From Anisakis pegreffii (Eukaryota > Nematoda > Chromadorea > Rhabditida > Anisakidae): a stretch of DNA of 64,000 bases. The position numbers and the translations under genes are program-made. Below, in pieces: positions 1-64,000 of the stretch (position 1 is its first letter; every line of letters starts with the position of its first letter). The notes under the pieces are model-generated. The model did not search any database. It was not told the DNA's origin and was given only the letters and a program-made list of their open reading frames with translations. The DNA is taken from NCBI GenBank assembly GCA_035041965.1, contig JAPYMA010003037.1, positions 62,001 through 126,000 of the forward strand, in the 5' to 3' direction.

Positions 1-1744
1 GTCAATTTGATAATGAAGCGCGGATCAATCATCAGTCAACAGCAACAACCAAAGGAGCAATAGAAGATTGCAAATCATCTTGTTCTGTTATTGAAATCAG
101 GTTCTAGGTTACTATTAGGTTACTGCGTCGCTAGACAGATCCACTAATTCTTTCCGATAGTATTCTCTTTGAGAAGATCTTCTCAAGATGGCTCAGAATA
201 ATGATAAAGCTAATGAAAACGATATGACTGATTAAAATTCAATGCAAGAAATGCGATGCATGCTCTTCAGAGAATCTATATTTTCAAAAAAATCAACAAC
301 GAGGTCACTGCATTGGAAAAATTCTAAAGAATTTTCCAGTTTGAATCCGTTGCGATTACGAAAATTTTCTTTTCACCTGGAATGAAATTCATGCTTCAAA
401 AAATATCAGAGTTGATTAGCGTATTTGTTAGCGAACATGGCAAATGTTGTGAACTGACAAGTGATTTAAAAAAATTGTTATATATGTTTACTTTGCAGTG
501 TTTAGAATTATTATTTTGATATCATAATAACTTTAAATTATATGACAACAGCTACACCCAAAGTATGTTCATGTGGAAATCTGTCTGTTATTGTGTGTAT
601 ATTTCATCTGCATAAATGTTTCACTTGAGATTGTTCAGTTGTTTGCGGTCAGATAAAAATTTTTAAACATTCTTATTGAATTCCCTCTCCGAGAGAACTC
701 CTTTCCGGTTAGGTAGCGCATCAATAAGGAGCTCTTATTTACGATGTCATTCCCGGCTACAGCCAACCATATTTACTGCTTTCATGAATGCTGCATCTCA
801 TTGCTTTGATAACCTTAATCAACCGGTACTTCAGTTGTATTGATAAGCTGGTGAGGACATTTGCGGCTGAATCGACTGGTAACGATATTTCTATCCTATC
901 ACAGTATCAGTAACAATTGCAGAAATTAACATCGGTGCAGCAACTGAATTTCATGTGGACAGACATCGGCAATGAAGCAAACAAGTACCAGACTAAATAA
1001 CAAACGAACGACTGCGATTGCTTTACGGTTTTCTGGTCTTGATTAACATTATTTTTATTTAACAAAAACTGAACAATGATCACATCACAGCTGATGTGGG
1101 CAGCTGATGAAATTTGCAACTGTTGAGCGAGTTGACTGTGTCTTTAAACAGAATGCACCAAGTCGATTTTGATACTTTCTTGAACGGTGCTGAAAGATTT
1201 TCTGATTGAACAATAATTCTGGCAAAATTTTCAGCACTAACAGACTCACCACAATACCATTTTTCATGATATTTTCATCACCAATTGCTGCAATCAATGT
1301 TTGCCTATAAATTAGAACAACCAATGTCATTCAGACTTTCTCCTTTGTCAATTCAAATCTGTTGTCTAATTGGTCCCATAAAAAAGTCCTTTTAATAAAT
1401 TATTCATGAATGTGGAATGTTCCGAACGTTCGTACGGTTCTGGAGAAATTAAGGAGGAACGTGGAGTTGTTTCAGATCACGTTGAATAAATCTCAAATGC
1501 AACAAAACATTCAACTTACTCTCGAAAGTAATCTCCCTGGACGGCTCCCGTTATTGCACAGCTCTTTTTCTTCTTCTGCAATATATTCATTGCAGACAAA
1601 GAAACTACTCAAATCCACAAAAGTTAACCGCACAGAATGTAATTGAAATAGAAGAATACTTTTTGAAAGAAGATCACGTTAACGCTTATTACATCCGATT
1701 GCCAATGGAGTTGACGTGAACACTTTTCATGCTCATTAACCACT
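1..1744. other. no gene recognised
   Basis: Short ORFs on both strands, none with convincing splice sites or recognisable protein. The far end lies just downstream of the minus-strand coiled-coil gene that stops at 1745, so part of it is probably that gene's 3' UTR and downstream spacer. Confidence 0.4.
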
Positions 1745-43811: not shown

Positions 43812-44915
43812 ATGGATTACTACTTAACTTACCAAATAGACGACTTTTTGACTGCCAGAAAAAGCGATCTTGCACTAGGCATTCCATATTGGAATGCATG
43901 TGAACTGGGAATCTTGCCTCAGTCACTGATACATCTTCGGAAAGGCGCCAGTGACTGGAGTAAGTTCACGTACACTCCACTTCGTATCGGTGTTGCGATA
44001 TTAGGCAGAGCGATAGGAGCGTTAACCCAACATGTACAAATCTTCCAAGGCATCCGAAATCTTCGAATTCATGCTCCCTGATCTGTCATCTTCAACTGTT
44101 TAGTTGAATCCGACCGTGTTAAGCAGCATATCTGTGTATTTATTTATGAATTGCATGATCTCATGTATTAAATCGTTTTCATTTATTAATTTTCGTGCAT
44201 TTTCGTTCTTATGCAATCAGTTTAAATGTTCAGACAAAATAAAAAGAATAAAATGAGTGCTCATGATGTCCGTAGGAGAAAATCAATTATCATTGGCTTT
44301 ATGTTCAAAATTTGATGTGTTCCGCAATAGCGACCCATATTCCAGACTCTGATGAATATCAGCTTCCCCAAGGACCCAATTAAGTACTTTACAAAGAACA
44401 TCAATTAACGAAATTTTCGTTTGAAGTATTCTCATTTCAAAGAAACTATCCGTAACAGTAACAGCATGAATTCCATTAGAATGCCAAGTCGATTATCTGA
44501 AGATCTGACCGAAAAAAAAAGATTTGCGATGATTGCTACGAAATTCGGAATCGATATCCGCAAATATCGGAAAAGCAACAGTGATAATCACATTTAATGA
44601 TGAAACAATCCAACTCAAAATTGTTTGCTACGAACAGACATCGGTTTAACGTCGATTGATTCAGTTACATCACCGAAACAGAGTAATGGTCAACAAACAC
44701 AAATAGCGCATAACTGACATTGAGTGAATTAAACAAGGAGGTGTGTAAACGTGGATGGTTTACGAGAGAGGATTGTGGTAAAATTGCGCTGAAACAACCA
44801 TAATTATCATCGGAATCATCATGAAAATACAAATGTTACACCAATCATTATGAACGCAGCTGAATCAATAATGCATTCAAGGTACGCTCAGCAGTAGATG
44901 GTAAGTTCTGAAGAG
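43812..44915. other. intergenic; no confident gene
   Basis: A plus-strand ORF of 89 codons (43812-44081) follows the membrane-protein gene closely but has no recognisable features and is probably fortuitous. The rest lies downstream of the minus-strand Cys-rich gene. Confidence 0.4.
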
Positions 44916-46812
44916 TCACCGCTTGCCTAAAACATGAACATAGTTTCCTTTAACGGACAAATAATTTCATTGTGCATGCGTATTTCCAATTAATGAGTAG
45001 TAGTTATTCGAAGGGGAATGAATCAAAGTAGTCAAATAGAGCAAAACAGACCTGTAAGACTGTCAGACTCGCTAGTGGCTATGCTCGACTAGGGATGCGG
45101 CTGAATTGTTGAATGCATCTGAAGTGTTGTAAATCAAGCTTTCGTTGCAAACATCAATAGCAATCATCATATTTGTCCCGTATTCGTTATGTACTTATCT
45201 TTATTGTCAATAGGACTATGGATCAAGAATTTGAATGGTTCTTCATGCGAAGCCCAAGCGAACTACCACTGAGGTGTGTGAATATTTAATTATCCAAGTT
45301 TAAATTGAAACGAACAAACCGAAGTAATGCGCAATATAATGTCCCGATTCAGAAACAACGTTTTGATGCTTACGAGTGAATGGAAATCGAATTGAGGAGA
45401 ACACAAGTAAATATGGGTATTTTGAGAGCAGAAGCATCCGATAAATCAAGCAGTATTATGCAAACTTACCAATTTCATCAGCTTTACACTGATTATGATC
45501 ACTAAAACATTCCCTCGCATGAGTTCTGCAACGAATCGTATCGCGACTGCACTTCTCAAGGCATCTTGCTAGCAAAGTAGGGCATCCTCAAAACAAATTC
45601 ATTTCAAATGAAAACATTCCGCTGTTGAGCATCAAACTCTATTTGATTCGTCTACAATTAAGTTCAGTGTTCGTAATATTTCTGCTGACTATTTGCGTAA
45701 CAGATATCGGTTAACAATTTATATCGGTTTTAACTCGAAAGCGAAGCATAATATCTTTGAGCTAGATGATTGTTTAATCATTCACGTTTGCAATGAAAAG
45801 GAAAAACTAAAATCTTGCGCGACATACTGTTGCGATTCTGAGGTAACATTTTGGTGATTTCGAATGTATGGAATGAAATGTCAGTTCAGGATACTCTGAA
45901 CGGTTTCAGAAAACGAATTTATTGTGTAATTCTTGGCGAAAACTAGTCCTTTGTCGAAATTGCTGATCGAATTGGGGAAACAGAAGTAAATGTACGTGCT
46001 CAGAAGCGTAAGCATCCGATAGTAAATCAGCATTATGCAAACATACCAATACATTGATTATATGTTTGCTGACAAGGCACAGTTGAACAACCCCCCGTGC
46101 TGACGCTACAACTTTCAAATACGGCAGCCTTACACGTGACTAGATTATGATCGCATTCTAAAATTGGACATCTTTTCAATGAAATTAGCTCGTCGTTGAT
46201 CATCAGACACTGTTTAGAAAGAAAGTATCGGAACATCATCAGAGCATGAAGCATACGAAGTAAATGTACGTGTCTCGGAGGCACAAACATCAATACATCG
46301 CTCATGTGACTGCTGACGAAATCATATGACCGATGTATTGATGTTTGTGTATTGACAAACATCCGATAGTAAATCAGCATTATGCAAACATACGAAGACA
46401 TTTGTGATATGACGGCTCACAAGCCGACATAGATGAACAATCCCCCGTGGTGACGCTACAATCGTGAAATTCGTCACTCTTACACCTGAGTAGATCTCTG
46501 CGGCAGTCTAAAATTGGACATCTTTTCAATGAAATTAGCTAGCCGTTGATCATCAAGAAAGTAGCGGCACATCATGAGAGCATGGAGCATACGAAGTATC
46601 CAGACGAGCGCTTACAACATATTCGAATTGTGCTTTATTTCATCTACGCGTTAGTTTCATGTGACACGACGATAACTTCTAGAATAGTGATCCAAAAGTG
46701 TTTAAAAATTATCATAGATGACACGAATAAACGTCTGAGGCTCACCTGTCGAAACAACTGCATTCAGATGAACTGCCAAGACCGTAAGAAGCAAATCAAC
46801 CTTAATACCCAT
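44916..46812 (-). CDS. short secreted cysteine-rich protein (paralogue A)
   Basis: Exons on the minus strand: 46812-46746 (signal peptide, hydrophobic core LLLTVLAVHL), 46507-46394, 46157-46047, 45586-45470 and terminal 44926-44916 (GKR-stop). Every junction is phase 1, and the sum is 420 nt, 139 aa. Three exons each encode one six-cysteine module; spacings are C-x6-C-x7-C-x6-C-x5-C-x6-C, C-x6-C-x7-C-x6-C-x4-C-x6-C, and C-x6-C-x3-C-x6-C-x6-C-x6-C. An extra exon-like segment at 45118-45052 resembles the Ser/Glu modules of the large paralogue but is 14 nt short and has an in-frame TAG; if it is included, the protein ends there. The signal peptide ends VVSTG, against AVSTG in the paralogue. The protein is presumably secreted and disulphide-bonded. 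I do not recognise the module as a named family; function unknown. Confidence 0.7.
45052..45118 (-). pseudogene. decayed Ser/Glu-type exon in paralogue A
   Basis: Acceptor CTTCAG and donor CAG|GTCTGTT match those of the intact Ser/Glu exons in the large paralogue. The exon is 67 nt instead of 81 and contains an in-frame TAG (45074-45072) after 14 residues. It is either skipped or gives a truncated protein. Confidence 0.65.
46283..46348. repeat. inverted repeat, hairpin-forming
   Basis: Perfect 18-bp arms ACAAACATCAATACATCG (46283-46300) and its reverse complement (46331-46348), with a 30-nt loop whose edges are also partly complementary. It lies in the intron between the first two Cys exons of paralogue A. 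Confidence 0.9.
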
Positions 46813-46897
46813 TGTTGTGGATGTAGAAGTGTTCAGTGAGTATGCTCATCAAAAAGGAAACGAATTTATAGTATTTTTAACACATGGCAAAGACCTT

Positions 46898-46925
46898 TTC
46901 ACGATGCACTCTTTCCTATCAGTTG
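46898..46925 (-). promoter_or_regulatory. conserved upstream block of paralogue A
   Basis: 28 bp, about 86-113 bp upstream of the start codon, identical but for one base to 55317-55344 upstream of the large paralogue, at nearly the same distance from its ATG. Both contain CACGATGCACTCTT and CCTATCAGTTG (plus-strand sense). The flanks have diverged more, so it may be a shared promoter element. Confidence 0.5.
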
Positions 46926-47029
46926 TCAATGAACTCAATTGATTACTGATCATCGATGACAAATTAGGGTGGAGTCTGGTGTCCTTTAGCTACGTATTGT
47001 ATAAATTTCCACGTCTGAGGTGAAACGAA

Positions 47030-47340
47030 CAAGTTGAAGTATTGCGCGAATATCTTCCCAAATTTGCACTTTGATGCATTCGAGTGCGTAGAATAAACTG
47101 TCCGCTCAGGATGATCAGAACGGTTTCAAGAAAGGAACTTACAATATCGTCAATGGTAATAACCTCATTCCTTCATTGAAGCCGGCATACACAAGTGAAT
47201 GTAGGTATTTTGAGAACGGAAGCATCCGACGGATGAAGCAGCATTATGCAAACTTATTCATTTCAACAGCTTTACACAAATCATGCCACTTTCAAAAATT
47301 TCGCACTTAGATGCTGATTCAAGCACGCAATGACTCAAGC
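47030..47340 (-). pseudogene. decayed Cys-rich exon copy with flanks
   Basis: The segment 47197-47262 matches the intron before the last Cys exon of paralogue A (shared TATTTTGAGA and GAAGCATCCGA). It is followed by a degraded Cys exon (47250-47320) in which the end TGTGTAAAGCTG(T)TGAAATG survives but the donor and the upstream cysteines are lost. A remnant of another family member. Confidence 0.6.
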
Positions 47341-47695
47341 TGTTTCTCTAATGTATTGTGGTATTATAGAATGAATGAAGATTAAGGTCGGTATAATCGA
47401 ATACGCATCAAAACAGCTGAAATTCTGATCGCAAGCTGACATGAGCGTTATTTTCTGCGTTGATCGGAATTGCATTCAAGGAAATGTTACTGATTGCTGT
47501 CTATTAACGTTGATAATTTTCGAGGAGATTGACTATCTGGGCGACTACTGTACTGAATCTGATGATTCTGATGCATTCTTCCATACTGATATGATAGGCT
47601 GATTGTATGGTGTGCAGATCGTCAACTTGCATCAATCTTTGAATGTGAATTCATTCAAGGAAAATTCAATGAATGACGTATGTCACGTTCCATAA

Positions 47696-47753
47696 GTCGT
47701 CATGTTCCTACCAATCATACTGATTAAAGTTCGATCGGTAGGAACTTGACGAC
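47696..47753. repeat. imperfect inverted repeat
   Basis: Arms 47696-47716 (GTCGTCATGTTCCTACCAATC) and 47733-47753 are complementary at 19 of 21 positions, with a 16-nt loop. It stands at the edge of a duplicated segment. Confidence 0.85.
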
Positions 47754-48162
47754 ATATGCCACTGCGACGTACACAAAAAGCCGATTAATGCTTTACAGAA
47801 CTACAGGGTATTGATGACGCACAGATGACGGGTATAGATGTGGGTGTAGGTGACGCTTGTTGACAGTGCAAACTGGAGCGAAAGAGTTAGCCACGAATTA
47901 ACACCAAACATGCATAAATTTACTCCACAACATCCATTATATGAATTTACAACCAACAAACAGCAGTAACGTAAAACTGACACCAAATGGAATGTAAATC
48001 AAGAACGAAAGATAACCCACATGTAACAACGAGATGACTGGAATGAAAATGATTGCTAATAATCATAATTATTTTCGAAACCACCAAGGTAACGAATAAA
48101 AAAAATCACTTTGTCTAAACCTAATGATTATCGTTCCATCGTGAATCGTTCCAGTTGACAAT
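47753..48162. repeat. duplicated segment, pair 1 copy a
   Basis: About 410 bp, nearly identical to 49657-50070 (long identical runs, a few substitutions and small indels). It lies immediately downstream (minus-strand sense) of an orphan terminal exon and looks like the 3' flank of a Cys-rich family member. Confidence 0.9.
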
Positions 48163-48445
48163 CACTGATTGGTAATGTGATCCGAAGGCTCATGCTATGC
48201 CTGAAAATGACGACAGGCTTTTTTTTTTACAACAGCTTCTCTATTGGTGAACAATTTATCCTGCTCTGTTCAGGACGCCTAATATGGTGACAATAGTCAA
48301 ATTTAGACATAAGAATAAGCTACTGCGGTTGATAATCACACCGCAAGAGCTAGTTATTTGACAATCAATAGCCATCACGCGAACAGTAACGAGCGATGAA
48401 TTTCTGCAACCGAAATCATTCAATTTTTCCAAACAAATTCTTTTG
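47987..48445. repeat. duplicated segment, pair 2 copy a
   Basis: About 455 bp, nearly identical to 57188-57648. It includes the orphan terminal exon at 48200-48190 and the region upstream of it, and overlaps the end of the other duplicated segment, so the same block has been copied at least three times. Confidence 0.9.
48190..48200 (-). pseudogene. orphan terminal exon of the Cys-rich family
   Basis: Acceptor TTTTCAG followed by GC ATA GCA TGA, the same phase-1 layout (two bases, two codons, TGA) as the last exons of both Cys-rich genes. No Cys exon was found within about 2 kb upstream, so it appears to be a leftover 3' end. Confidence 0.55.
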
Positions 48446-49656
48446 CTATTCACTAACAATTCTCAGTCGTATGTACATGCCAAAACATGGCCTTGATAGC
48501 TGCCACCAGCCCTGTGTAATCACTCGGTTCCAGTCGGCTTCTCAGATTCAACATTAGCTTCATGATCTTCAACGAAATAGACTGTATGGATTGTGCATGA
48601 CGCAGTTACAATAGTAATATTAAGATGTGTTTGTTTTACTACTGAATTCAGCAAGAATGACAATGTTACCTCTTTATTCAAATTATGGCTCTTCTGCTGT
48701 TATTTGTGCGTGAATGATGTGTGAATGTCTTTAATTCGTTCCTATCGCTCATGTTGACCAAATCCTCGTATTCGTTTCCGAGTGCACATAGTGGCACATA
48801 TAGCGCATATGGTCTTCGAGCGCTGCAAACCTATCCACGCTCGATAAAAAGCGATCAATTCGAACGTTGTGCAATCAATACATTGCTGTAATTCGTGGTG
48901 CAAATTTCGAATTCAGACGTATTTCATTGTTGTAATGTTTGATGAATTGAGACAAACAACGGCGCAGTCAGATTCTGAACAACTTTGAGTAGCCAGTGCC
49001 GTATTTCAGTTTTGATCACAGTTTCACTCCAGCATACACACTGTCGATGGAATCAGTGATATATTTGATAATGGTCTCATTTCGTATGGATAAGCATCAT
49101 ATGCAGCATTACCATCCTTATCAACAGTGCACTCTTTACGTGTAGCAAATATCGAAAGATAGTGAAAAAACTGCAGCGAGACAGTACTAAACTGAGAATA
49201 ACGGTGCTAATAGAATGTGAATGCGATGCGAATGCAATGCAGAAGGTGCCTCAAAAAATATCGTTCTGATTTGTAAAACCTACAAAACCGTTTTCGTTTT
49301 AAAACAGTTTGGAAACCTTAAAAGAACCATTTCGTAATGTGAATCCTGCGGAATTACCCATTGTAAATTGATTGAAAAGTGCATTTGGTGCACTTGGAGC
49401 ACTGAAACGCAGAGGAAGAAAGTTTTTTTCCGTAGTCTTTCACGATAGTTTCATAGAAGCCTCATGCGGTTCAAAAATCCAGATCAATCCCGTTCCATAT
49501 CTCCACCGAAGATTGAAAAGTGAACTGTCCAGTGGGGCTTTCGGGAGATCTGAATTATCTGAACAGTTGTCCAGAACTGTATGGTGTTCGTGATCGTCAA
49601 TTTGCATCAATCTTCGAATGCGAATTCAATCAGTTCGATTGGTGGGAACATGACGG
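48446..49656. other. spacer within the cluster; no exon recognised
   Basis: No six-cysteine exon, signal-peptide exon or Ser/Glu exon could be found. The part at 49575-49656 resembles 47600-47690 and 56395-56460, that is, it belongs to the duplicated downstream flank. Confidence 0.45.
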
Positions 49657-50070
49657 CATATGCCACTGCGACGTACACGAAAACCAGATTAATGCTTTAC
49701 AGAACCACAGAGTATTGATGACGCACAGATGACGGGTATAGATGTGGGTGTAGGTGACGCTTGTTGACAGTGCAAACTGGAGCGAAAGAGTTAGCCACGA
49801 ATTAACACCAAACATGCATAAATTTACTCCACAACATCCATTATATGAATTTACAACCAACAAACAGCAGTAACGTAAAACTGACACCAAATGGAATGTA
49901 AATCAAGAACGAAAGATAACCCACATGTAATAACGAGATAACTGGAATGAAAATGATTTCTAATAATCATAATTATTTTCGAAACAACCACCAACGTAAC
50001 GAATAAGAAAAAATCACTTTGTCTAAACCTAATGATTATCGCTCCATCGTGAATCCTTCCAGTTGACAAT
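49657..50070. repeat. duplicated segment, pair 1 copy b
   Basis: About 414 bp, nearly identical to 47753-48162, ending just downstream of the orphan terminal exon at 50095-50085. Divergence between the copies is a few per cent by eye, so the duplication is recent. Confidence 0.9.
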
Positions 50071-50084
50071 GAGTTTTGAAGAGT

Positions 50085-50095
50085 CACGCATTGCC
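50085..50095 (-). pseudogene. orphan terminal exon of the Cys-rich family
   Basis: Acceptor ACACAG followed by GC AAT GCG TGA, phase 1, as in the family. It lies 0.5 kb downstream of the true terminal exon of the large Cys-rich gene (50597-50587) and could serve as an alternative last exon for it. Confidence 0.5.
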
Positions 50096-50586
50096 TGTGT
50101 CGCGACCAGTAGAAAATTTAAAATCTGAATCCGCAAAAACCAAACAATCTAAGAGTTAAGGTAGTAATGACGTTCAACAATAAAACAACAAAATTGCTTG
50201 CTAGGACATCAGCCGAACGTGTATTTATTCAATTACATCAATGAGAAATGGAATCATGATCAGCAAACACCGATTAGACAAAACTGGCACTAAGTAAATC
50301 TTAAATAACGAAGTAAGCAACGAGGATAAATCAATGTCCTCAAAAACCAAACGAAATCAACAATAGATCATCAACGTCTTCAACCAATAAAGTAGCACAA
50401 GGAGGCGGTGTAACTGCGAAAGATTCACCAGAGACGATTGAGATAAAATTAACCTGAAACAAGCATAATTATCTTCGAAGCCATTGATATGTTCAAACAA
50501 TAAAAGAGTACAAATTTTCAAACAATCTGAATGATTACCAATACAATCAGGAGAGCGTTCATCAGTGGGCGATGAGTTTTGAGGAG

Positions 50587-53500
50587 TCATACATTGCCTG
50601 AAAAATGAACAATTTCTCATACGTCTTTTGCATAGCTCTTCATGAAAAGACTATTCTGATTTGACCACGATGCAGAGAATAGAGATTTTTTAGCCAAACT
50701 CGGAAGAAAAAAAGCGAATAGAATGAAATGTCTCATCAGGATAGTCTGACCGGTTTGAGAAAACTATGTAACGGCTGGCGAGAACCTAGATGCTTCGGTG
50801 AAAATGATGATAGAATTGAGGGGAACACAAGTAAATGTAGGCGTTTCGAAAGCCCAAGCATTTGATAGAACTAGTTTCATTATGCAAACTTACCACTTTT
50901 GCCAGCCTCACACTGATCACGTAAATGAACACAACGTTCTACAAGTTCCGGACAATTCCTCATCATGCGACCGCAACCACTTCGGTTCATCTCGATACAT
51001 TTCATAAGCTGACTATCGCAGGCTCAAAATAAACGCCTTATGAATTATAACATTTCATCCCTGAGCATAAAAGCTTATTTGATTCGTCAGTAATCACAGT
51101 AAGTGATGGTGCTTCCAGACAACAATCGTGAGCAAATGACTTCCTACTGTATTTGCGCTTCTCATTAATGATTTAGTTTAGGATGAATGCATCTTATTAG
51201 TCAAATAGGCCGCAACAGACCATCAGGATTTCTGAGGATGTTGGCATCACGCTTGAGCTCGAATGCGCTCCAGCTTGACTCCACCTCCGACTTAATAGGT
51301 TCTGCAACTGAAGCGTTAACCGATCACGTAAATCAACATTTCGTTGCTCGACATTTCAATATCAATCGTTGTGTTTGCTGTGAATGAACGATTTGAGTCG
51401 GTTCCAATGCGAACATTGAGTTGATCGTCAGTAAGCTGTGTGAAATTAGTCAAGTAGATCATAACATACCTGCAAGAATTTCAGCGCTATTGGTGCTACG
51501 CTCCACCTCGAATGCGCTTGAGCTTGACTCCACTTGCGACTGAGTTCCATCTGCAATTGAAATGCGAATCATCATTTACACGTTGATATAGTTCGATGAC
51601 AATGATTCTTTTGGCTACAAATGATTCTATGACTAGTCAGTTTCAACGCGGAGGCTGAGTAAAATGTCATTGAGCTATTTGAGTGTATAGCAACTCATTT
51701 TTGATTAGAAGAGGAGAAGCTAACAAACTGAATTTCTGCGCAATGTACTCTTTCGATTCCTAATCAACGTTTCAGTGTTTTCGAGTGCACAGAATGAAAT
51801 GTGCGATTAGGATATTGTTTCAGGGAGCGGATTTATCATATCGTGTGTGGCGGAAACCATCTCTCTATTCAAATTGCTGATCGAATAGGGTAAAAGTTAA
51901 TGCACGCGTCCCGAGACCTCAAGCTCTCGACAGAGCAATCGGAATAATGGAAGCTTACTACTTTCAGCAGATTCGCAATGGTCATATGAATGATAACACT
52001 GCCACATAGTTTGCAGGCAAGTCGTCGCGCAGTGACCGCAACATTTCAAGGTGTTATCAAGACATGTCCTTAGACGACTACTGCATCCTCAAAATAAACG
52101 CCTTTTAAATCAAAATGCTTCATCCCTGGGCATCAAGCTCTGTTTTATTCGTCAACAGTCGTAGAAAGTAGTGACGCTTCAAGGCAGCAACCGCGAGCAA
52201 ATGACTTCCTACTATATTTGTGCTTCCCATGAATGATTTAGTTGAAGAGGAATGCCTCCCAGTAGTCAAACAGGACGTAGCATACCCGCAGTACTTTCAG
52301 AGCTGTTGGCACTAAGCTCCACCTCGAATGCACTCGAGCTTGACTCCACCTCCGACTGAGTAATTTCCGCATCTGAAGTGTTGAATCATCATGTAAATCA
52401 ACAAATCGTTACTCATTTCAAAACCAATCGCTGTATTTGCTATGAATGAACGATGAGTCGCTTTCAACACGAAGAGTGAACTGGTCATCGGTAAGCTGTG
52501 TGAAATCAGTCAAATAGACCATAACAGACCCGCAGGCTTTTCAGAGCTGTTGGCATTACGGTTCACCTCGGATGCGCTCGAGATTGCTTCCACCTGCGAC
52601 TTCGTTGTTTCTGTAACTGGAGAGCTTAATCATCGTTCACGTGAGAATTCCGTTGCATATTCCGATGGCAATGATTCTTTTTGCTATGTATGAATAATTT
52701 GAGTCAGTTTCAACGCGAAGGCTGAGCAAATTATCACAGACCTATCTGAGTGTATAGCCATTCATTTTTGAGTGGAGGAAGGGAAGCTAACAAACTTAAT
52801 TTTTACGCAATGTACTCTTTCGATTCCTAACCAACGGTTTTGGTGTCTTCGAGTGTATAGAATGAAATGTGCGATTACAATATTGTGACCGATTTCAGGA
52901 AACAAACGGATTCATCATGTCATGTGTGGTGGAAACCACCTCTCTATTTAAATTGCTGATCGAATTTGGTGGAAATAAGTTAATGTACGTGTCCCGAGAG
53001 CTCAGAATTACGATAGAGCAATCATTATAACGGAAACTTACCAATTTCAGCAGATTCGCAAAGGTCACGTGAATGATAACAGTGCCATATATTTAGCAGG
53101 CAAGGCTTCATCAAGTGACCGCAACTGCTCCAGGTTTCCTCAAGACATGCTCCTAGCTGACTATGACATCCTCAAAATAAACACTTTTTAAATCAAAAAG
53201 TTTCATCTTTGAGCACCAAACCCTAGTTTATTCGTCAATAAGCATAGAAATTAGTGGTTCTTCGAGACAGAAAATGACTTCCTACTATACCTATGCTTCC
53301 CATTGATGATTTCCACTAACGGAAATCTATCCTAACAGCCAAATATAACTTAACAGACCTGAAGCGTTTCCGGGGTTGATGGCATTACGATCGACCTCTG
53401 ATGCGCTCCAACTTGTCTCCACCTTCGACTGAGCCCTTCCTGCAACTCTACTATCAGTTCATCGTGTAATTCAATATTCCGTTCTAAACATTCATATCAA

Positions 53501-55228
53501 TCATTCTGTCAGTTTTGTTTGAATAATATGACTCGCTTTCACCACGAAGGCTGAATACATTCTCGATGAGCCGTGTGAGCGTATAGTCATCCACGATTAA
53601 AATAATAAATTGCAGTTCTGCGCAATAGTTTGTTCCGGTTTCTGAACCAACATTTTGATGCTTTCGAGTGTATACAATAAAGTGTCCGCTCAGGATATTC
53701 AGAGCACTTTCAAGGAACAGATTCATTTTGCCATTTGTGGCGAGAAGCTCTGCTTTATTTGAATTGCTGATCAAATTGGTGGAAAAGCAGATAGATAGAC
53801 ATACGTGGAGATAAGAATCATATTACAGAGCAATAAGCAAGCTTACCCATTTCAGCAGCTTCACAGATATCACGTGAAAGATAACAGCGCCTTACAGTAA
53901 GCAAGCAAAGCTTCATGAAGTGACCACAACTGTTTCTGTTGTCCTCAAGGCATGTCTTCAGCTGACTATCGCATTCTCAAAGTAAACGCCTATTGAATGA
54001 AAACATTTCATCAACGAGCATCGAACTGTATTCGATTCGTCAACAATCACAGAAAGTAGTGATGCTTTATAACCGCAACCACAGGGAAATGAATTCCTAT
54101 GGCGTCTGTGTTTCCCATTAAGGAGTTACTTCAAGGGATGTAACAGACCTGCAGAAGTTCCAAATCTGCTCGCAGTACGCTCGACCTCGTATGCTCGTAG
54201 GCTTGCTTTCGCCATCGATCGAGCAACTTCTGTAACTCTAGCTTTCATTGCCTCTTTTGTTTGATATCCCTCTCTAATAATAATCTCATCGTCTTCAAAC
54301 GAAACTGTCGTTGTTTCGTTCTTGTTCAATTCGCACGTCTTAATTAAACCCGAATTATAAGTTATGGTCGTGATTTCCGCGACACTTACGAAAAGCTGAT
54401 GGATTTCAAGAAATAAATTTATCGTATCGCGTGTGATGATAACGTTAATCTTTGATTGAAAATGCTGACTGAATTGGGGGAAATGAGTAAATTTACGTGT
54501 CTCATGAGCACAAGCTATCATAGAGCAAACATCATCATAAAAATTTACCGAATCCATCAGCTCTACACAGATCATGACTATGGCGGCAGTCTTGTGAAGG
54601 TATCAAGCAAGGCATCGCCAAGATACGGCAAGATACCCATGCGACTTCAAGACACCGCTTTAAATCTCTGTTACATTCTGAAAATAAGCGCCCTTTAAAT
54701 CAAACTCCAGTGTTTCCGCTTACAGTGAACTGTTTCAAGAGGTGAGCATAACGATCCGATGGAGCAATGATCATTATGCAAACATACCAATACACTGGCC
54801 GTATGAATGCTGACAACGCAATAGAGATGGACAAGACGGCTCGGTGATGCTGCAATCGCTCCGTGCCGCAGCGGTACACAGCTGCCGATCACGACCGCAG
54901 TCTTAAATTAAACGTCTCCTCAATGAAATTAACCCGTCGTTGAACATCTAATACTACTTACTCCGCAAACAGTGAGAGAAAATAGGGGCTCTTTATAACA
55001 GCATGGACCATACGAAGCGTTTAGGCAACCAGTTACAACATACCAAATTATCGTTTATTTCATCTACACTGTTAGTTTTATGTTACACGATGATAACTTC
55101 CAAAATAGTGATTCAAAGGTGTATAAAAACTAGATGAAACAAATAACTCCCTACGGCTCACCTGTCGAAACGGCTGCAGTCAAATGAATTGTCAGGAACG
55201 TAACAAGCAAACCAGTCTTCATACTCAT
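50587..55228 (-). CDS. large modular secreted cysteine-rich protein, 14 exons (paralogue B)
   Basis: Minus-strand exons: 55228-55162 (signal peptide, core LLVTFLTIHL), 54901-54788 Cys, 54677-54549 Cys, 54229-54149 Ser/Glu, 53975-53847 Cys, 53439-53359 Ser/Glu, 53170-53042 Cys, 52610-52530 and 52372-52286 Ser/Glu, 52087-51959 Cys, 51550-51470 and 51301-51221 Ser/Glu, 51022-50894 Cys, and terminal 50597-50587 (TGA). All junctions are phase 1; 1329 nt, 442 aa. Five Cys exons are exactly 129 nt and encode C-x6-C-x7-C-x6-C-x6-C-x6-C; the first (114 nt) has x5 in the fourth gap, and that at 52087 has two extra Cys. Ser/Glu exons are 81 or 87 nt with a core like SQVESSSSAFEVERS. No membrane span follows the signal peptide, so it is presumably secreted, with disulphide-knotted helical beads on flexible, possibly O-glycosylated linkers. 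No known family recognised; alternative splicing of the symmetric exons would always stay in frame. Confidence 0.8.
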
Positions 55229-55316
55229 CGGCGTGGATGTAGCAGTGTGCAGTGAACATGTTCATCAAGGAGCTGACGAATTTGTATTACTTTTTGCAGC
55301 ACATAACAGTAAGCGT

Positions 55317-55344
55317 TTCACGATGCACTCTTGCCTATCAGTTG
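55317..55344 (-). promoter_or_regulatory. conserved upstream block of paralogue B
   Basis: 28 bp, about 89-116 bp upstream of the start codon; 27 of 28 bases match 46898-46925, at the equivalent place upstream of paralogue A. Candidate shared promoter or 5' UTR element; no TATA box stands out. Confidence 0.5.
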
Positions 55345-56906
55345 AGAATGAAGCCAGTTGACTGGTATTACTAAATCAACTTCGCTTCATAAACAGAATG
55401 ACATCATCGATGACACAAAATCGAACAAATGCAGTTGAATTTCATGCAATGATGGAAATAAACGTTTTAAAGACAATCGACAGCCCGCATTCAAAATATT
55501 TGTGCTGAAAATTTTCAACAGCAGTGAATTGATAGCAGGAATGATATTTCTACTGGACAACATTCAGGATTGCCCGCCAGAGAATTTGCATCGCTTTTTT
55601 TCAGCAAGCAACACTAACTGGACTGTCCTATAAGTACCCATCAGGAAAGTATCACTGTGTGCCCATCTAGGTAGCATTCTGGATTCAACATGAAGAGATC
55701 AGTTTCTCGGAATCCACATTGTTGTTCCTCAAACTAATGTTTATAGAGAGGGAAGCCAGATCAAATAAACTTGCCTGTGATCAAAGATGGCGGATGCCGA
55801 TATCTACGTGATAGTGCATGTATAACTGCTGTGGAAAGAAATGAAAACTGTGTTGAAGAATATTCCTTCATGCTTTTTGAAATGGAGCAAGTTTCCGGTT
55901 TCTGAAGCACATTGGGTTTTGAATTTTCGCAAGTCATCGCACTCTCGATGCTTACTTCTAGGAGAGTTTTTTGAGTGTTCGTGAGAAATCTTTATCCAGT
56001 GGCAGTGGCTCGAAAATTTGGATTACATCGAGTTTTGATAGGCATATGTTTCTTATTTGAGCCACCGCACACTGCTCTTCGTTGCGATATGGTTTGCGGA
56101 AGATTCACCTGAACGTTTTCTAGAGCAGTTCAGATTTCCGTTCGACAATGCAGAAAGAAGACAGAACGAAAGTAATCGATGGCCCTAATTTGCTACCGAG
56201 ACATTCGCATCCCTAGAAACCAATCAACTCTTCTGCGTGAATTAGAATTGCACTCAAAGGAGAGTTACTCATTACTGTCCATTATTTGATAATTTTTGAG
56301 GAGATTGACTAGATGGACGACTACTGAACTGAATCTGATGATTCTGATGCATTCTTCATACTGACTATGAGATATTAATTGTGTGTTGTGCAAATCTTCA
56401 TTTTGCAGCAGCATTTGAATGCGATTTCGATCAATTCGATTGGCAGGAACGTGACGACACACGCCACTGCTGAATATGCAAACAGCAGATTAATCCTTTG
56501 CAGAATAACATTGTTAAGGGTTTAGATGATGTTTGTTCATAGTACAAAGCAAAGCAAAAGAGCCAACCAGCTATGAATCGACATTAAACATGCCTTAATT
56601 TACTCGACAGCATACAATACATTTAGAATTTAGAATCAACAGACATCAATGAAACGATTTCGAATTGAATGATTTTTCAAATGACAAGACATAAAACGTA
56701 AACGACGAACGAAACAAGTCTCACAAGTGACCACGAAACGTTTTTTAGAGATGTCTGGAATGAAAATGATTCTTAATAATCATAATTATTGCCGAAACCA
56801 TCAAATTATCAAATAAAAAATATCACTTTGTCTAAACGTAATGGTTATCGCTCCATCATCAACACTTCCATATGACAATCACTAATCAGTAAAATGCTTC
56901 CAGAGA
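55345..56906. other. spacer within the cluster; duplicated flank, no exon recognised
   Basis: 56260-56460 resembles 47460-47660 (shared GAGGAGATTGACTA and CTGAATCTGATGATTCTGAT), so it is another copy of the downstream flank of a family member. The rest (55345-56250) shows no supported gene. Confidence 0.45.
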
Positions 56907-56917
56907 TCATGCATCGC
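56907..56917 (-). pseudogene. orphan terminal exon of the Cys-rich family
   Basis: Acceptor TTTTCAG followed by GC GAT GCA TGA, phase 1. No upstream Cys exon is visible; a palindromic element has inserted about 50 bp upstream (minus-strand sense). Confidence 0.55.
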
Positions 56918-56969
56918 CTGAAAATGATAACAAGCTTTACTGTAAATTAACAGCTTCTCTACTCGTGAA

Positions 56970-57143
56970 TAGTGATGTCTCTATTCCAGTTAAACTGTTC
57001 CATTCCTGTTCTGTTCCATGGAATAGAATAGAACAGTTCGTAAACGAAGAAGGAACAGTTTGGAACAGAATAGAGCCGCATTTGAGCCCCCCAAAAAAAC
57101 AGAATGGAACAGTTTTCAAAAACGTGGTATAGAGACATCATTA
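56970..57143. mobile_element. palindromic MITE, 174 bp, hAT-like, with known empty sites
   Basis: Ends TAGTGATGTCTCTATTCC (56970-56987) and its reverse complement with two mismatches (57126-57143). The interior is largely palindromic with repeated GGAACAG/CTGTTCC motifs. It is flanked by CTCGTGAA and CCCGTGAA, an 8-bp duplication with one mismatch. The paralogous segments at about 48248 and 57455 read straight through (GGTGAACAATTTATCC) without the element. Eight-bp duplication and TAG-type ends suggest the hAT superfamily; there is no transposase. Confidence 0.8.
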
Positions 57144-57187
57144 CCCGTGAACAATTCATCCGGCTCTGTTCAGACATAAAACTGAAA

Positions 57188-57648
57188 CCAAATGAAACGT
57201 CGATGAAGAACGAAAGAAAACTCACATGTAACAACGAGATGACTACAATAAAAATGATTTCTAATAATCATAACTATTTTCGAAACCACCAAGGTAACGA
57301 TTAAAAAAAATCACTTTGTCTAAACCTAATGATTATCGTTCCATTGTGAATCGTTCCAGTTGACAATCACTGATTGGTAATGTGATCCGAAGGCTCATGC
57401 TATGCCTGAAAATGACGACAGGCTTTTTTTTTTACAAATCAACAGCTTCTCCATTGGTGAACAATTTATCCTGCTCTGTTCAGGACGCCAAATATGGTGA
57501 CAATAGTCAAATTTAGACATAAGAATAGGCTACTGCGGTTGATAATCACACCACAAGAGTTAGTTATTTGACAATCAATAGCCATCACGCGAACAGTAAC
57601 GAGCGATGAATTTCTGCAACCGAAATCATTCAATTTTTCCAAATAAAT
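57188..57648. repeat. duplicated segment, pair 2 copy b
   Basis: About 460 bp, nearly identical to 47987-48445, including the orphan terminal exon at 57405-57395. It follows the MITE-containing copy head to tail. Confidence 0.9.
57395..57405 (-). pseudogene. orphan terminal exon of the Cys-rich family
   Basis: Same sequence as the orphan at 48200-48190 (acceptor TTTTCAG, then GC ATA GCA TGA). No Cys or signal exon was seen upstream of it within this window. Confidence 0.55.
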
Positions 57649-57975
57649 TCATTTGTTGCTCGTTAATATTTTGCAGCCGCGTGTACATGCCAAATAAGGC
57701 CCTGATGGCTTTTACTAGCCGTGTGTAATCGCTCGGTTCCATTCTTAGATTCAAGATCATTTCATGATCCTCGCTGAAAATTCATCAGACGGATTTTGCA
57801 TGACAGGATTTTGCAATTCATATGACGATATAGTTGTTTTTAAACTATTTTCAGTGAAATTCAAAATAGTTTCTTGTTATTTTGAATATAGCTCTTTTCC
57901 TACAAATTCAACGCAATCTCTTGTCGATCTTCAATGCAAAATTAAGTGTTCGTTTTCCGTTGATTTTTTTTTCAG

Positions 57976-58908
57976 AGAGCTGAAACAATTACAGCGGACC
58001 AGAATACAGTTAAGGGCAAGCATTCTCATACAGCTTATCATGATTTGAAGCTGGAAATCTTTATTTGGCATTCGAAAGCAGTAAAGTATCAGTTCAATTT
58101 TAGTCTTGCAATCGTGAAACGTGCACTCATTGCCCCATTTTCGGCGTGATAACTTCGCAGGAAATCGCTTGAGTTGGAAGTTTTCACAGTCACGATGTAT
58201 GATGGCGCTTCATTTGATTTACTAACCCATGCGATCCTGTGGAGCTGAAGGACTGTCCATTTTGTTTGTATTCAAAAGTGTTGATTCGTTTGTGCAATTT
58301 TTGTATCGTTGACGTGCATTGTAAGATTTGTACAGTTGCTGTACTAAAGAATAAGAAGTTTCGAGTGAGAAGCGAAGAAGTCTCAAAATTGGATGCGTAA
58401 AGGCATGGAAAAAATTGAGAATCATCTTGAAATGATCGGAGCCAGTGTAATTTTTCAAGATCAGCGAGGATCACCGAAAACAAGATGCTTTCGTTCAGAG
58501 TTGTCAAATGATGAATCAAACGATGGAGAACGGGTAGGATTTAGTGAAGATTTGGTTCAGCACGTATGATTAATTCATGATGAGAAACGTGTATTTCGAC
58601 GGAGCACGGAACCTGATTGCAGCTTCCATAATGCCTTAAATAAACTCGAGAATTGTTTGACTGATGACGCGATGAACACTCATTGACGGCTTTGAATCCT
58701 CTTTGACCAAGTCACTGCTTCGAATAATCCACTAAGTACTGGTTGTTCAGATGAAGACATTCAAATCAGCTTATTCGAGATTTCTTTTTTTGGATCTGAT
58801 TTTCAGCAGGAACCCGAATACGATGGTTTGACATTATTTTATTCATTCAGATTCACGACATCGTTATTGCGATACCTGAAGTGGAAAAAAACAGAATTTT
58901 GTTTATAA
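57976..58908 (+). CDS. putative Cys-rich, zinc-finger-like protein (model unresolved)
   Basis: A set of plus-strand exon-like segments with coding character. 57976-58080 (good TTTTTTTTTCAG acceptor); 58104-58145, with SCNRETCTHCPIFG; an open stretch 58218-58397 containing DCPFC, LCNFC and HCKICTV, three paired-Cys knuckles; 58405-58566, acidic; and terminal 58807-58908 with a good TTTTCAG acceptor, reading QEPEYDGLTLFYSF to a TAA. The paired cysteines suggest zinc binding. Problems: the first two segments are only 23 nt apart, and the frame after SKLDA (58397) continues only if one base (T58398) is ignored or another splice is used, so there may be a sequencing indel or pseudogenisation. A start codon was not found. 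Family not recognised. Confidence 0.4.
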
Positions 58909-61900: not shown

Positions 61901-64000
61901 GACTGTTTGAGTATATGCGAGAATCGATGCCAGAGCGAACGTTTTATTGCTCCTAGCCAAAGGGAACAATGTAAGGAAGTTGTGATTTGTCCTTTAACGA
62001 TAGATTATCTCTCTTACGTACATCCTGCAAACTAAGCATATTCGAACTGAACGATAGACGGATTTTTTGGATGTCACCTTTGCCAGAAGCATTTTCACTC
62101 GTTGACTAGTAACAAAGTGAAATGGTACCCGGAGATTTTCTCTAAAGACGTTTTGCCTAACGACAGTTTGCCTACTGGATGACGAAATATCCATTAAAAA
62201 ACCGTCCGTTAGGCACTGTGTCCATAGACAAACCATCGTTAGGCAAAACGTTTTTAGGCAAATTATCTGATCACGATGTGAAACTTATGGTGTCTAGCTA
62301 AGAAACAACCTTGCAATTGGCTTGAAACGTTAATCTTTAAAAATCTCCATATCTAAATTCATTTATCAAGTTCCATGATCGAAGAACTTATATAATGCTT
62401 CGTTGCATCCGTGATGCATTCAGAAATTTCGTTTAGTCCTCAATGGCACATTTCGTTTATTCGTCAATTTATTTGTCGTTTTCGATTGAATGTCGTCGTC
62501 CTTCAACGATATCGAGATAATTGTTATTGCACTCGTAAAATTAAGATGATTTTGGTGTGCGATCATATTGATGTTTTTAATTCATATGACATTGATAAGC
62601 ATATCAAGGTAAGAGGATAATCCTCAATTTGGAGGAGCATTTTGATGAAACGATAACGGTTGAATGGCTTGCTGTTGATTGACAATCTCGTTTTTGATGG
62701 TTATTTCATGGATGCGATATCCTTGCTCTAATGATCACTAATGCAGGCGTTGGACAGACAAAACCAGTTTCTCTACGTTCAGTCTAATAACCACATCAGT
62801 AGTAACCTGCCTGCGGCACTCAACACAGATCATAAAACTTGCATTTGCTTGTTAATCCGTCTTAATGTTTTTATTTTCCAACGCGTATCCTTTTCGACTC
62901 TCAAGCAGATGTGCCTATGAATCACTATCATTTATCATCATCACAACACATTCGTCATGTCTTAATCCATTATTCGCGGTTACGTTGCATTCAATCCGTC
63001 TTACATATATTACACAAGGCGTGTAGAGCTGTCGGTTCGTTATCCATTAAAATTCGCAACTTGTCATACACCTAATTGACGTAAATGACTTATGACTGTC
63101 ACAATAAACAGCTAAGGATGTTTATCCCTTAATATAAATGGAAATGTTCCACAAGTGTAAACCTAATTCACAGAAATGATAAAATAACAGTTTCAAATTT
63201 GAAAAAGTGAACGTTTGCCTCACTAAGGATATCAAGCCAATAGCTTAGGATGAAACCGAAATCATAGTTGAAATGCTAATTTCGTTGATTTTAGCACTCA
63301 ACAAACTAACATCTGCGTTAACTGAGATGCGCTAGCGACGAACCAACATGGGGTTCGTTTGGATTTCGTGAATTATGAAAATCGATCAGAATTCTGAACG
63401 TTTCCCTTTCGAATCATGCCAATCGGATTGACCTAGCAAAGTCAAATTGAGAAGCCGTAAAAAGAAATGAGGCATTTGATGTGATAATTGGATTTGTCTC
63501 AATGACTTTGCACCGAATCCTGTTTCTTCCTAAAATTGCTAGATGCGATGTTTTAGTAGGTGATTGTAGTTTTTTGCATGACTAACGCAATGAATATCTT
63601 CATACCTGTTATATAATATAATCTTCTTCCATCTCACTTAAATTGTTCATTTTGAAAATTCATGAACGTCTCTATATGTTTCTCGGTTCCATGTATATCA
63701 ACAAATCCCAATAGAAATATTCTATTCATACGTCACCCGTTCCCGACAAGTTTTGCAGCAATTGTGAATTGAATTTGTTGATTGCGTTTTAATTGTCGCT
63801 TGCATTTAAGAAAACGGACGCATTTCAATCAAACCATCACTTGAATTCTGCATTATTTGTGGTTTTCCCGATTGTTTCTTGTATGGTGAATCCGTTGAAT
63901 GTTTTTGCGAATGTCCCAAGACTCATATATGTTCTCAACCAAAAAAAAACCGACTGCAGTGATGATATCGTGAATCGAACTGAGAACGAATTCCCTCGTC
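58909..64000. other. no confident gene
   Basis: Short ORFs only. Two weak exon-like pieces: minus 60550-60426 (starting VTEVVHEGILKTQHRKYVE) and plus 62411-62609, which ends at a strong donor (AAG|GTAAGA). Neither could be linked to partners. A fold-back repeat lies at about 62141-62258. Confidence 0.35.
62141..62258. repeat. fold-back repeat with GCCTAACGA motif
   Basis: Perfect 16-bp arms ACGTTTTGCCTAACGA (62148-62163) and its reverse complement (62236-62251), with further partial complementarity on both sides, about 30 bp per arm in all. The core TTAGGCA/TGCCTAA occurs several more times between and beside the arms. Possibly a short fold-back transposable element. Confidence 0.8.

What the first reader, a model, noticed from the sequence alone, without database searches (positions are those of the whole stretch)
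50587..55228. A secreted protein built from alternating symmetric exon modules: six-Cys beads and Ser/Glu linkers
Seen: 14 exons, all internal ones phase 1-1; five of exactly 129 nt with C-x6-C-x7-C-x6-C-x6-C-x6-C, one of 114 nt, and six of 81 or 87 nt that are Ser/Glu-rich; the sum is divisible by three with a signal peptide first and TGA last. Introns between modules are also similar, so whole exon-plus-intron units were duplicated. Inferred: a rapidly evolving, possibly variable-length secreted protein (surface, egg-coat or host-interface). Any subset of exons can be skipped in frame. I do not recognise the Cys spacing as a named domain.
Basis: partly seen in the sequence, partly recalled or inferred. 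Interest (0 to 1): 0.85.

Follow-up and report, generated by a model that had tools for sequence, protein, structure and literature searches.

The report
Orphan bead-and-linker secreted worm protein family
A roundworm that looks like the fish parasite Anisakis appears to carry a large family of probably secreted proteins built like beads on a string, matching no known family in these searches, in which each bead keeps six cysteines while the stretch between them changes fast, as expected of proteins that meet a changing partner such as a host.

Summary
On the minus strand, 55228 to 50587, 14 exons join to 1341 nt (446 aa and TGA): a signal-peptide-like exon, six six-cysteine bead exons and six Ser/Glu/Asn linker exons, internal junctions all phase 1. 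It belongs to a large family: 87 bead matches on 23 contigs, the signal-exon DNA at 11 places, beads with linkers in all six regions read at length. eIF1A points to an anisakid nematode. Pfam, NCBIfam, PDB sequences and two protein-database searches gave no credible family. New here: the outer CX6C arms are exactly spaced in 56 of 56 beads; the bead middle changes faster than silent sites (pN/pS 3.15, p 0.0017) while linkers look constrained; and 39 of 56 bead exons have a TTTGAG acceptor, while 1 of 47 linkers ends in GAG. Best reading: a multivalent secreted recognition protein, helical-hairpin beads on glycosylatable linkers, grown by exon-unit duplication and diversified at a host or mating interface. 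Fold, expression, secretion and target are untested.

The parts
55162..55228 (-). Exon 1: signal-peptide-like start MSMKTGLLVTFLTIHLTAAVST, donor GTGAGC
   Evidence: DNA around this exon matches 11 places in the genome, this one included
54788..54901 (-). Exon 2: bead 1, 114 nt, spacing 6-7-6-5-6, acceptor ATTTAAG
54549..54677 (-). Exon 3: bead 2, 129 nt, acceptor TTTTCAG
54149..54229 (-). Exon 4: linker 1, 81 nt
53847..53975 (-). Exon 5: bead 3, 129 nt, acceptor CTTTGAG
53359..53439 (-). Exon 6: linker 2, 81 nt
53042..53170 (-). Exon 7: bead 4, 129 nt, acceptor TTTTGAG; query of the genome search
52530..52616 (-). Exon 8: linker 3, 87 nt (81 if the second of two tandem acceptors is used)
52286..52372 (-). 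Exon 9: linker 4, 87 nt
51959..52087 (-). Exon 10: bead 5, 129 nt, two extra Cys, acceptor TTTTGAG
51470..51550 (-). Exon 11: linker 5, 81 nt
51221..51307 (-). Exon 12: linker 6, 87 nt (81 if the second of two tandem acceptors is used)
50894..51022 (-). Exon 13: bead 6, 129 nt, acceptor TTTTGAG
50587..50597 (-). Exon 14 (least certain): 11 nt ending in TGA, acceptor TTTTTCAG
   Evidence: alternative end by intron read-through
45470..46812 (-). Tandem paralogue: signal exon 46812-46746 and bead exons 46507-46394, 46157-46047, 45586-45470; no linker found between the beads; 3' end not found

Best explanation
A real, multi-exon gene of a large secreted-protein family of an anisakid nematode. Each bead is most likely a small helical hairpin stapled by three nested disulphides (C1-C6, C2-C5, C3-C4; Cys at 1, 8, 16, 23, 30, 37): two arms of invariant CX6C spacing hold a variable middle. 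Ser/Glu/Asn-rich linkers, many with an N-glycosylation motif, keep beads apart. Because bead and linker each sit in their own phase-1 exon with similar intron ends, units can be duplicated, lost, exchanged or skipped without breaking the frame. The mature soluble protein would work as a multivalent binder or decoy whose bead middles are diversified by selection, most likely at the host interface. Shown: exon arithmetic, family size, arm spacing, excess amino-acid over silent change in the middle. Inferred: splicing as modelled, fold and disulphide pairing, glycosylation, secretion, and function.
For: Exon chain. Family: 87 bead matches at E<=1 on 23 contigs, 40 of them at E<=0.001; 56 bead exons on 14 contigs in the DNA held; signal-exon DNA at 11 places. 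C1-C2 and C5-C6 spacing is 6 in 56 of 56 although 5-7 was allowed; middle spacings vary in 9 of 56. Selection, 47 standard-spaced beads, pairs chosen by intron similarity: middle pN 0.105, pS 0.033, 65 versus 6 differences, p 0.0017, 14 pairs; arms ratio 1.13, not significant. Codon model on 41 distinct beads: omega 2.37 in the middle, 0.85 in the arms. Linkers pN/pS 0.61, p 0.0007, 15 pairs chosen by exon similarity. N-X-S/T in 28 of 40 linkers and 6 of 56 beads (not corrected for composition). Hairpin: helix-like hydrophobic periodicity in positions 1-16 (p 0.006 at 90 degrees, 0.019 at 100); no Pro at 1-17 or 29-37 in 41 distinct standard beads, Pro in 16 of 41 at position 22. C3 and C4 are both missing in three related C809 copies and in C1522:25189.
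Against: No transcript or protein evidence. No structure: the fold job was lost and the tool then switched off. Positions 23-37 gave weak helix periodicity with Cys (p 0.034 at 110 degrees, 0.059 at 100) and none without. The nested pairing is not borne out by all Cys losses: besides the C3+C4 losses there is loss of C3 alone (C648, C1417), of C2 alone (C648:130919) and of C4 with C5 (C1223:4211). A non-standard bead in L069 has three Pro at positions 12-15. With pairs chosen by exon similarity the whole-bead ratio was 1.06 (15 pairs, p 0.41), the fair comparison with the linkers' 0.61. The codon model is saturated and gave linkers 1.17 (not different from 1) against 0.61 pairwise, so its absolute values are not trusted. 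Recombination between beads is visible and some pairs may be alleles. 4 of 75 bead-like places carry stops. Nothing ties the family to a host tissue rather than to eggs, sperm or immunity.
Confidence: 0.45

Rival explanations
1. Reproductive protein: the same architecture serves in the egg coat, seminal fluid or sperm-egg recognition, and diversification comes from sexual conflict.
For: Repeated, fast-changing Cys-rich modules with constrained spacers would look the same. Nothing found here is specific to a host.
Against: No direct evidence either way; no tissue or stage data were available.
Confidence: 0.2
2. Innate-immunity peptide precursor: beads act on microbes and may be released from the linkers by proteases, as granulin modules are from progranulin (abstract of PMC4527844 seen in the listing).
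For: Small six-Cys modules in tandem with linkers; fast change is common in such peptides (recalled).
Against: Beads are not strikingly cationic: D 7.0%, R 6.9%, E 6.3%, K 3.3% of 56 beads. Cleavage sites were not tested.
Confidence: 0.1
3. Mostly a decaying or selfish tandem repeat: units multiply by unequal crossing-over, many copies are broken, and few are expressed.
For: Stops in 4 of 75 bead-like places and Cys losses in others; no open linker at the end of the neighbour gene; identical units in C475 and C111.
Against: Arm spacing invariant in 56 of 56; 45 of 47 linker places read as open, with the caller's bias noted above; linkers constrained in pairs; amino-acid change above silent change in the bead middle; signal-exon DNA kept at 11 places.
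Confidence: 0.1
4. A diverged branch of a described nematode Cys-rich family (ShKT, TIL, CCP/TGM, or the Ani s 7 / 12 / 14 repeats).
For: Probably the same worm family as Ani s 7, 12 and 14, whose repeats also hold widely spaced Cys (PMC7397233, passages).
Against: No Pfam family for the gene at E<=10 and none above cut-off for window beads. Published spacings differ (CX17-25CX9-22CX8CX6; CX13-25CX9CX7-8CX6; CX8CX6CX22,26C). The CxxxCxxC end of ShKT (recalled) is absent from the window beads.
Confidence: 0.1

Closest known systems
TGM family of Heligmosomoides polygyrus (TGF-beta mimics; PMC10516467, passages read)
   Same: Nematode secreted multigene family, tandem Cys modules, exon modularity, module duplication and neofunctionalisation; different domains bind different receptors.
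   Different: TGM domains are about 80 aa, CCP-like, with 4 or 6 Cys, each coded by two exons. Beads are about 43 aa, one exon each, predicted helical, alternate with separate linker exons, and match no CCP profile.
Ani s 7 / Ani s 12 / Ani s 14 repeat allergens of Anisakis (PMC7397233, passages)
   Same: Probably the same family of worms; tandem Cys repeats, of 40-52 aa in Ani s 12; Ani s 7 and 12 have unknown biological function (PMC6080401, passages).
   Different: Four Cys per repeat with other spacing; no separate Ser/Glu linker exons are described in what I read; their sequences were not compared here.
ShKT (SXC) domain proteins
   Same: Six-Cys modules, numerous in this genome: 85 matches at E<=0.001 (a lower bound).
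   Different: Different Cys spacing; the listed ShKT matches include none on the window's contig, and none of 9 window beads matches it in Pfam.
Twin CX9C / CX3C proteins of the mitochondrial intermembrane space (motifs in PMC5404111, passages)
   Same: Works like, if the model holds: antiparallel helices stapled by nested disulphides (pairing recalled).
   Different: Two rungs (recalled), mitochondrial and not secreted; here three rungs at CX6C / CX7C spacing. No sequence relation found in Pfam.

Membership tests
ShKT (PF01549) | Six Cys ending in CxxxCxxC and a Pfam match | tested here: not met
   Window beads end in Cx5-6Cx6C; no ShKT match for 9 window beads nor for the full gene. The motif is recalled. 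The genome-wide bead scan could not have found such an ending (it allowed 5-7 between C5 and C6).
CCP / TGM-like | About 80-aa module with 4 or 6 Cys over two exons, CCP profile | tested here: not met
   One module per 114-129-nt exon; no Sushi/CCP match in Pfam. TGM features from PMC10516467 (passages).
Ani s 7 / 12 / 14 repeats | CX17-25CX9-22CX8CX6, CX13-25CX9CX7-8CX6 or CX8CX6CX22,26C | tested here: not met
   Beads fall in 6-(3..7)-(6..8)-(4..6)-6 in 56 of 56 (the scan asked for six Cys in loose spacing).
Ani s 7 / 12 / 14 repeats | Sequence or fold homology | not tested
MSG (PF02349) | Match above the Pfam cut-off | tested here: not met
   1 of 9 window beads, E 0.0034; 19.5 bits against a cut-off of 22 for the same bead with two added end residues.
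Secreted soluble protein | N-terminal signal peptide, no anchor | tested here: inconclusive
   Start looks right by eye in this gene and its neighbour; no predictor was run.
Nested three-disulphide helical hairpin | C1-C6, C2-C5, C3-C4 pairing between two antiparallel helices | tested here: inconclusive
   For: symmetric Cys positions, helix periodicity in arm 1, Pro distribution, C3 and C4 missing together in two contigs. Against: loss of C3 alone, C2 alone, C4 with C5; weak arm-2 periodicity. No model.

The most novel reading that the evidence does not exclude
A splicing-based repertoire generator: bead exons are cassette exons kept deliberately weak by the family-wide acceptor TTTGAG (or TTTAAG) while linkers keep CAG, so that each transcript draws a different in-frame subset of beads, with intron read-through adding early stops. 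One gene would then make many bead strings, a Dscam-like diversity system (comparison recalled) in a parasite secretion. Evidence: the base at -3 is G in 39 and A in 9 of 56 bead exons (36 and 6 of 50 distinct), against 1 and 1 of 47 linkers (Fisher p 8e-14 with copies counted singly). GTTTATTTTGAGNNTGY occurs 41 times genome-wide (reversed control 4), 36 on contigs that hold beads, while the CAG form occurs 9 times (control 3). The intron tail is similar to about -30. Against: no transcripts; GAG may simply be inherited with the unit; that G at -3 is weak is inferred from the C. elegans consensus; my linker caller preferred C or T at -3; the genome's background rate of GAG acceptors is poorly known.
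Probability: 0.18. Interest if true: 0.85.

Novelty: new variant of a known kind. Interest (0 to 1): 0.62.

Why it matters
Anisakis larvae infect people through fish and cause allergy (abstracts in the listing), yet the repeat allergens Ani s 7 and 12 were still called proteins of unknown function (PMC6080401, passages). An orphan family at many loci, with an apparently new six-Cys module and signs of diversifying selection, is a concrete list of candidates for what the worm shows its hosts or mates. The recurrent GAG acceptors make a question directly testable with RNA-seq: whether modular secreted proteins of parasites are varied by exon skipping as well as by gene duplication.

Tried and rejected
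Rejected: plant-parasitic cyst nematode, suspected from genome size. Pectate lyase gave no match, though no control rang either; an NPA polyprotein array is present; eIF1A is 99% identical over 80% to Anisakis simplex and 88% to Toxocara and Parascaris. Rejected: ShKT, CCP and MSG membership (see membership test). Rejected as chance: Pfam matches such as 3H, UBZ, FliT, EF-Ts and phospholipase A2, each in 1 of 5 gene models (19 families listed at E<=10, none in the window gene). The 3H match passes its cut-off narrowly (25.7 against 25 bits) in a repetitive partial model.

Led nowhere: tandem repeat finder on L069; ShKT exons as a background for acceptors (one usable, itself GAG); structure prediction; PDB sequence search (best E 0.18 and 0.41). 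Background of acceptors outside 44001-58000: TTTCAG 85 against 27 reversed and 54 for the AC control, TTTGAG 36 against 33 and 47; both eIF1A introns end in CAG. This suggests, but does not measure, that CAG is the usual acceptor.

Selection tests: pairs chosen by exon similarity gave 1.42 (10 pairs, p 0.32), 20 amino-acid against 0 silent differences (2 pairs, p 0.005), 1.23 (11 pairs, p 0.068) and 1.06 overall (15 pairs, p 0.41). The split into arms and middle and the choice of pairs by introns were made afterwards; p values are not corrected. Only beads of standard spacing were used (47 of 56; 41 distinct). Introns were aligned with gaps and gap columns dropped, which understates their divergence, so the tests of pN against introns lean towards my reading. 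The linker set is 40 of the 47 places (two not open and five of other length or border dropped).
Full report
OBSERVATION. The gene is on the minus strand. Joining the exons at 55228-55162, 54901-54788, 54677-54549, 54229-54149, 53975-53847, 53439-53359, 53170-53042, 52616-52530, 52372-52286, 52087-51959, 51550-51470, 51307-51221, 51022-50894 and 50597-50587 gives 1341 nt that translate to 446 residues and TGA, with 38 cysteines. All internal junctions are in phase 1. Intron parts are repeated with the exons. Exon 14 is tiny and could be replaced by read-through of the last bead donor, which meets a stop after four codons; 30 of 50 distinct bead donors do so.

THE ORGANISM. The genome has 122.7 Mb in 1740 contigs. 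The nematode spliced leader matches 302 places with up to 2 mismatches, the 100 listed ones exactly, against 0 for the reversed control. The eIF1A gene of this window (31500-32679) is 99% identical over 80% of its length to Anisakis simplex and 88% over 99% to Toxocara canis and Parascaris univalens. I take it as an anisakid, Anisakis or a close relative; the species is not proven.

THE FAMILY. One bead finds 87 matches at E<=1 on 23 contigs, 40 at E<=0.001; another bead finds 74. DNA around the signal exon matches 11 places, this one and its neighbour included; these were not read one by one, and some may be alleles or broken. Corresponding beads of C1522 and C1223 lie in the same order, the four pairs listed being 91-99% identical. 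In the DNA held, a scan requiring an AG acceptor, four T in the 12 bases before it, six Cys in loose spacing and a GT[AG] donor found 56 bead exons on 14 contigs, 50 distinct peptides. Donors were chosen by rule, so lengths other than 129 (34 of 56 are 129) are uncertain. A homology scan found 75 bead-like places. Of the 19 not among the 56, six keep six Cys, one is matched only in part, four lack C3 and C4 (three of them close copies on C809), two lack C3, one lacks C2, one lacks C4 and C5, and four carry stops. Linkers, found by DNA similarity in six regions, number 47, of which 45 were read as open by a script that preferred open frames. Beads and linkers occur together in all six regions. 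A second, smaller gene with three beads and no linker found between them lies next door at 46812-45470. In C111 three beads about 743 bp apart differ by at most one residue, and two further beads share their first half with these but not their second, which points to exchange inside bead exons.

NO KNOWN RELATIVE. Pfam: none for the corrected gene at E<=10; for nine window beads only scattered weak matches, best MSG in 1 of 9 at E 0.0034. NCBIfam, which serves bacteria and archaea, had none for the nine beads. PDB sequences: best E 0.18. Searches of 5.8 billion proteins with the gene and with five gene models gave nothing at E<=1, although the same database holds many nematode proteins. That search needs shared 5-residue words and similar length, and scored only the 7987 candidates sharing most words, so fast-evolving or fragmentary relatives can be missed. 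Paper searches showed no description of such a family in the listings I saw, which are capped.

HOW A BEAD IS BUILT. In the 41 distinct beads of standard spacing the arms keep a pattern, for instance L at position 9 in 37 and D at 35 in 29. Positions 1-16 show the periodicity of an amphipathic helix with the Cys (p 0.006 at 90 degrees, 0.019 at 100) and without (0.009, 0.044); positions 23-37 show it only weakly and only with the Cys. Pro is absent from 1-17 and 29-37 and peaks at 22 in these 41, but one non-standard bead in L069 has three Pro at 12-15. Cys positions 1, 8, 16, 23, 30, 37 are symmetric (sums 38, 38, 39), as three nested staples of an antiparallel hairpin would be. Loss of C3 and C4 together on two contigs fits; loss of C3 alone, of C2 alone and of C4 with C5 does not, though some of these copies may be dead. 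This fold is inference; no model could be made.

SELECTION. Choosing independent pairs by similarity of flanking introns, so as not to select on the exon, the bead middle has 65 amino-acid and 6 silent differences (pN 0.105, pS 0.033, p 0.0017; 14 pairs) and the arms 26.5 and 6.5 (ratio 1.13). In the 10 pairs with intron difference 0.12-0.27 the middle has pN/pS 1.40, p 0.04, and pN 0.353 against 0.193 in introns (p 8e-13, inflated because gap columns of introns were dropped). In the 11 closest pairs pN/pS is 7.5, p 0.0096, but pN does not exceed introns significantly (0.053 against 0.041, p 0.12). Pairs chosen by exon similarity gave 1.06 for the whole bead, not significant, against 0.61 for linkers chosen the same way (p 0.0007). 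A one-ratio codon model on 41 beads gave 1.23-1.29 with Cys (log values), and on that tree 1.78 without (2 dlnL 23.3), 2.37 for the middle and 0.85 for the arms. The trees are saturated, and the same model gave linkers 1.17, not different from 1. The safe statement is the contrast: bead middle above silent change, arms near one, linkers below in pairs.

SPLICE SITES. In C. elegans the acceptor is UUUUCAG/R, and changing the C at -3 to U already lowers U2AF binding (PMC4889670, passages); the effect of G is my inference. Here 39 of 56 bead exons have G and 9 have A at -3 (36 and 6 of 50 distinct), while linkers have CAG in 41 of 47 (p 8e-14; my linker caller favoured C or T, and copies are not independent). 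Positions -4 to -11 of bead acceptors are 76-100% one base, and similarity extends to about -30. Genome-wide, GTTTATTTTGAGNNTGY occurs 41 times, 36 on contigs that hold bead matches, against 4 for the reversed pattern; the CAG form occurs 9 times against 3. Several linkers have two acceptors 6 nt apart, a pattern reported for paired sites in C. elegans. This may be plain inheritance with the duplicated unit or a device that keeps bead exons skippable; only transcripts can tell.

INTERPRETATION. The parts fit a soluble, multivalent, possibly glycosylated bead-string protein whose bead middles face a changing partner. A host interface is the most likely partner in a parasite; reproduction or immunity remain open. 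The closest parallel in working style is the TGM family of Heligmosomoides (PMC10516467, passages), for which no relation was found. Anisakis allergens Ani s 7, 12 and 14 are also Cys repeats but with other spacings (PMC7397233, passages).

Noticed in passing
window 45025-45138 (-) and 47153-47281: A linker-like stretch with no open phase-1 exon after the neighbour gene, and a stretch 65% like a bead-end-plus-intron repeat before it: perhaps remnants of lost units.
   Followed up: partly
window 47728-48493, 49632-50136, 56686-57703: Dispersed repeats of 264-300 nt around both genes, up to 97% identical; possibly the substrate for local duplication.
   Followed up: no
L069 4950-6248 (C111): Two beads share the first half with their neighbours but have a different second half: exchange inside bead exons.
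   Followed up: partly
bead donors in the loci held: 30 of 50 distinct bead donors are followed in frame by a stop at the fifth codon (G-K-F-A-stop type), so retained introns would truncate the protein.
   Followed up: partly
window 6857-7726 (-) and 11454-12245 (-): Long open frames rich in Asn, Ser, Thr and Glu, mucin-like, no Pfam match at E<=0.01.
   Followed up: no
G000:C1694:130912-136925: Array of 16 matches to NPA (polyprotein allergen), many with identical scores about 1.2 kb apart.
   Followed up: no
G000:C14:549-3882 and C181:498-2175: Spliced leader SL1 copies at a regular 552-bp spacing.
   Followed up: no
window 62132-62267: Inverted repeat with 43-nt arms, 81% complementary, 50 nt apart.
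   Followed up: no
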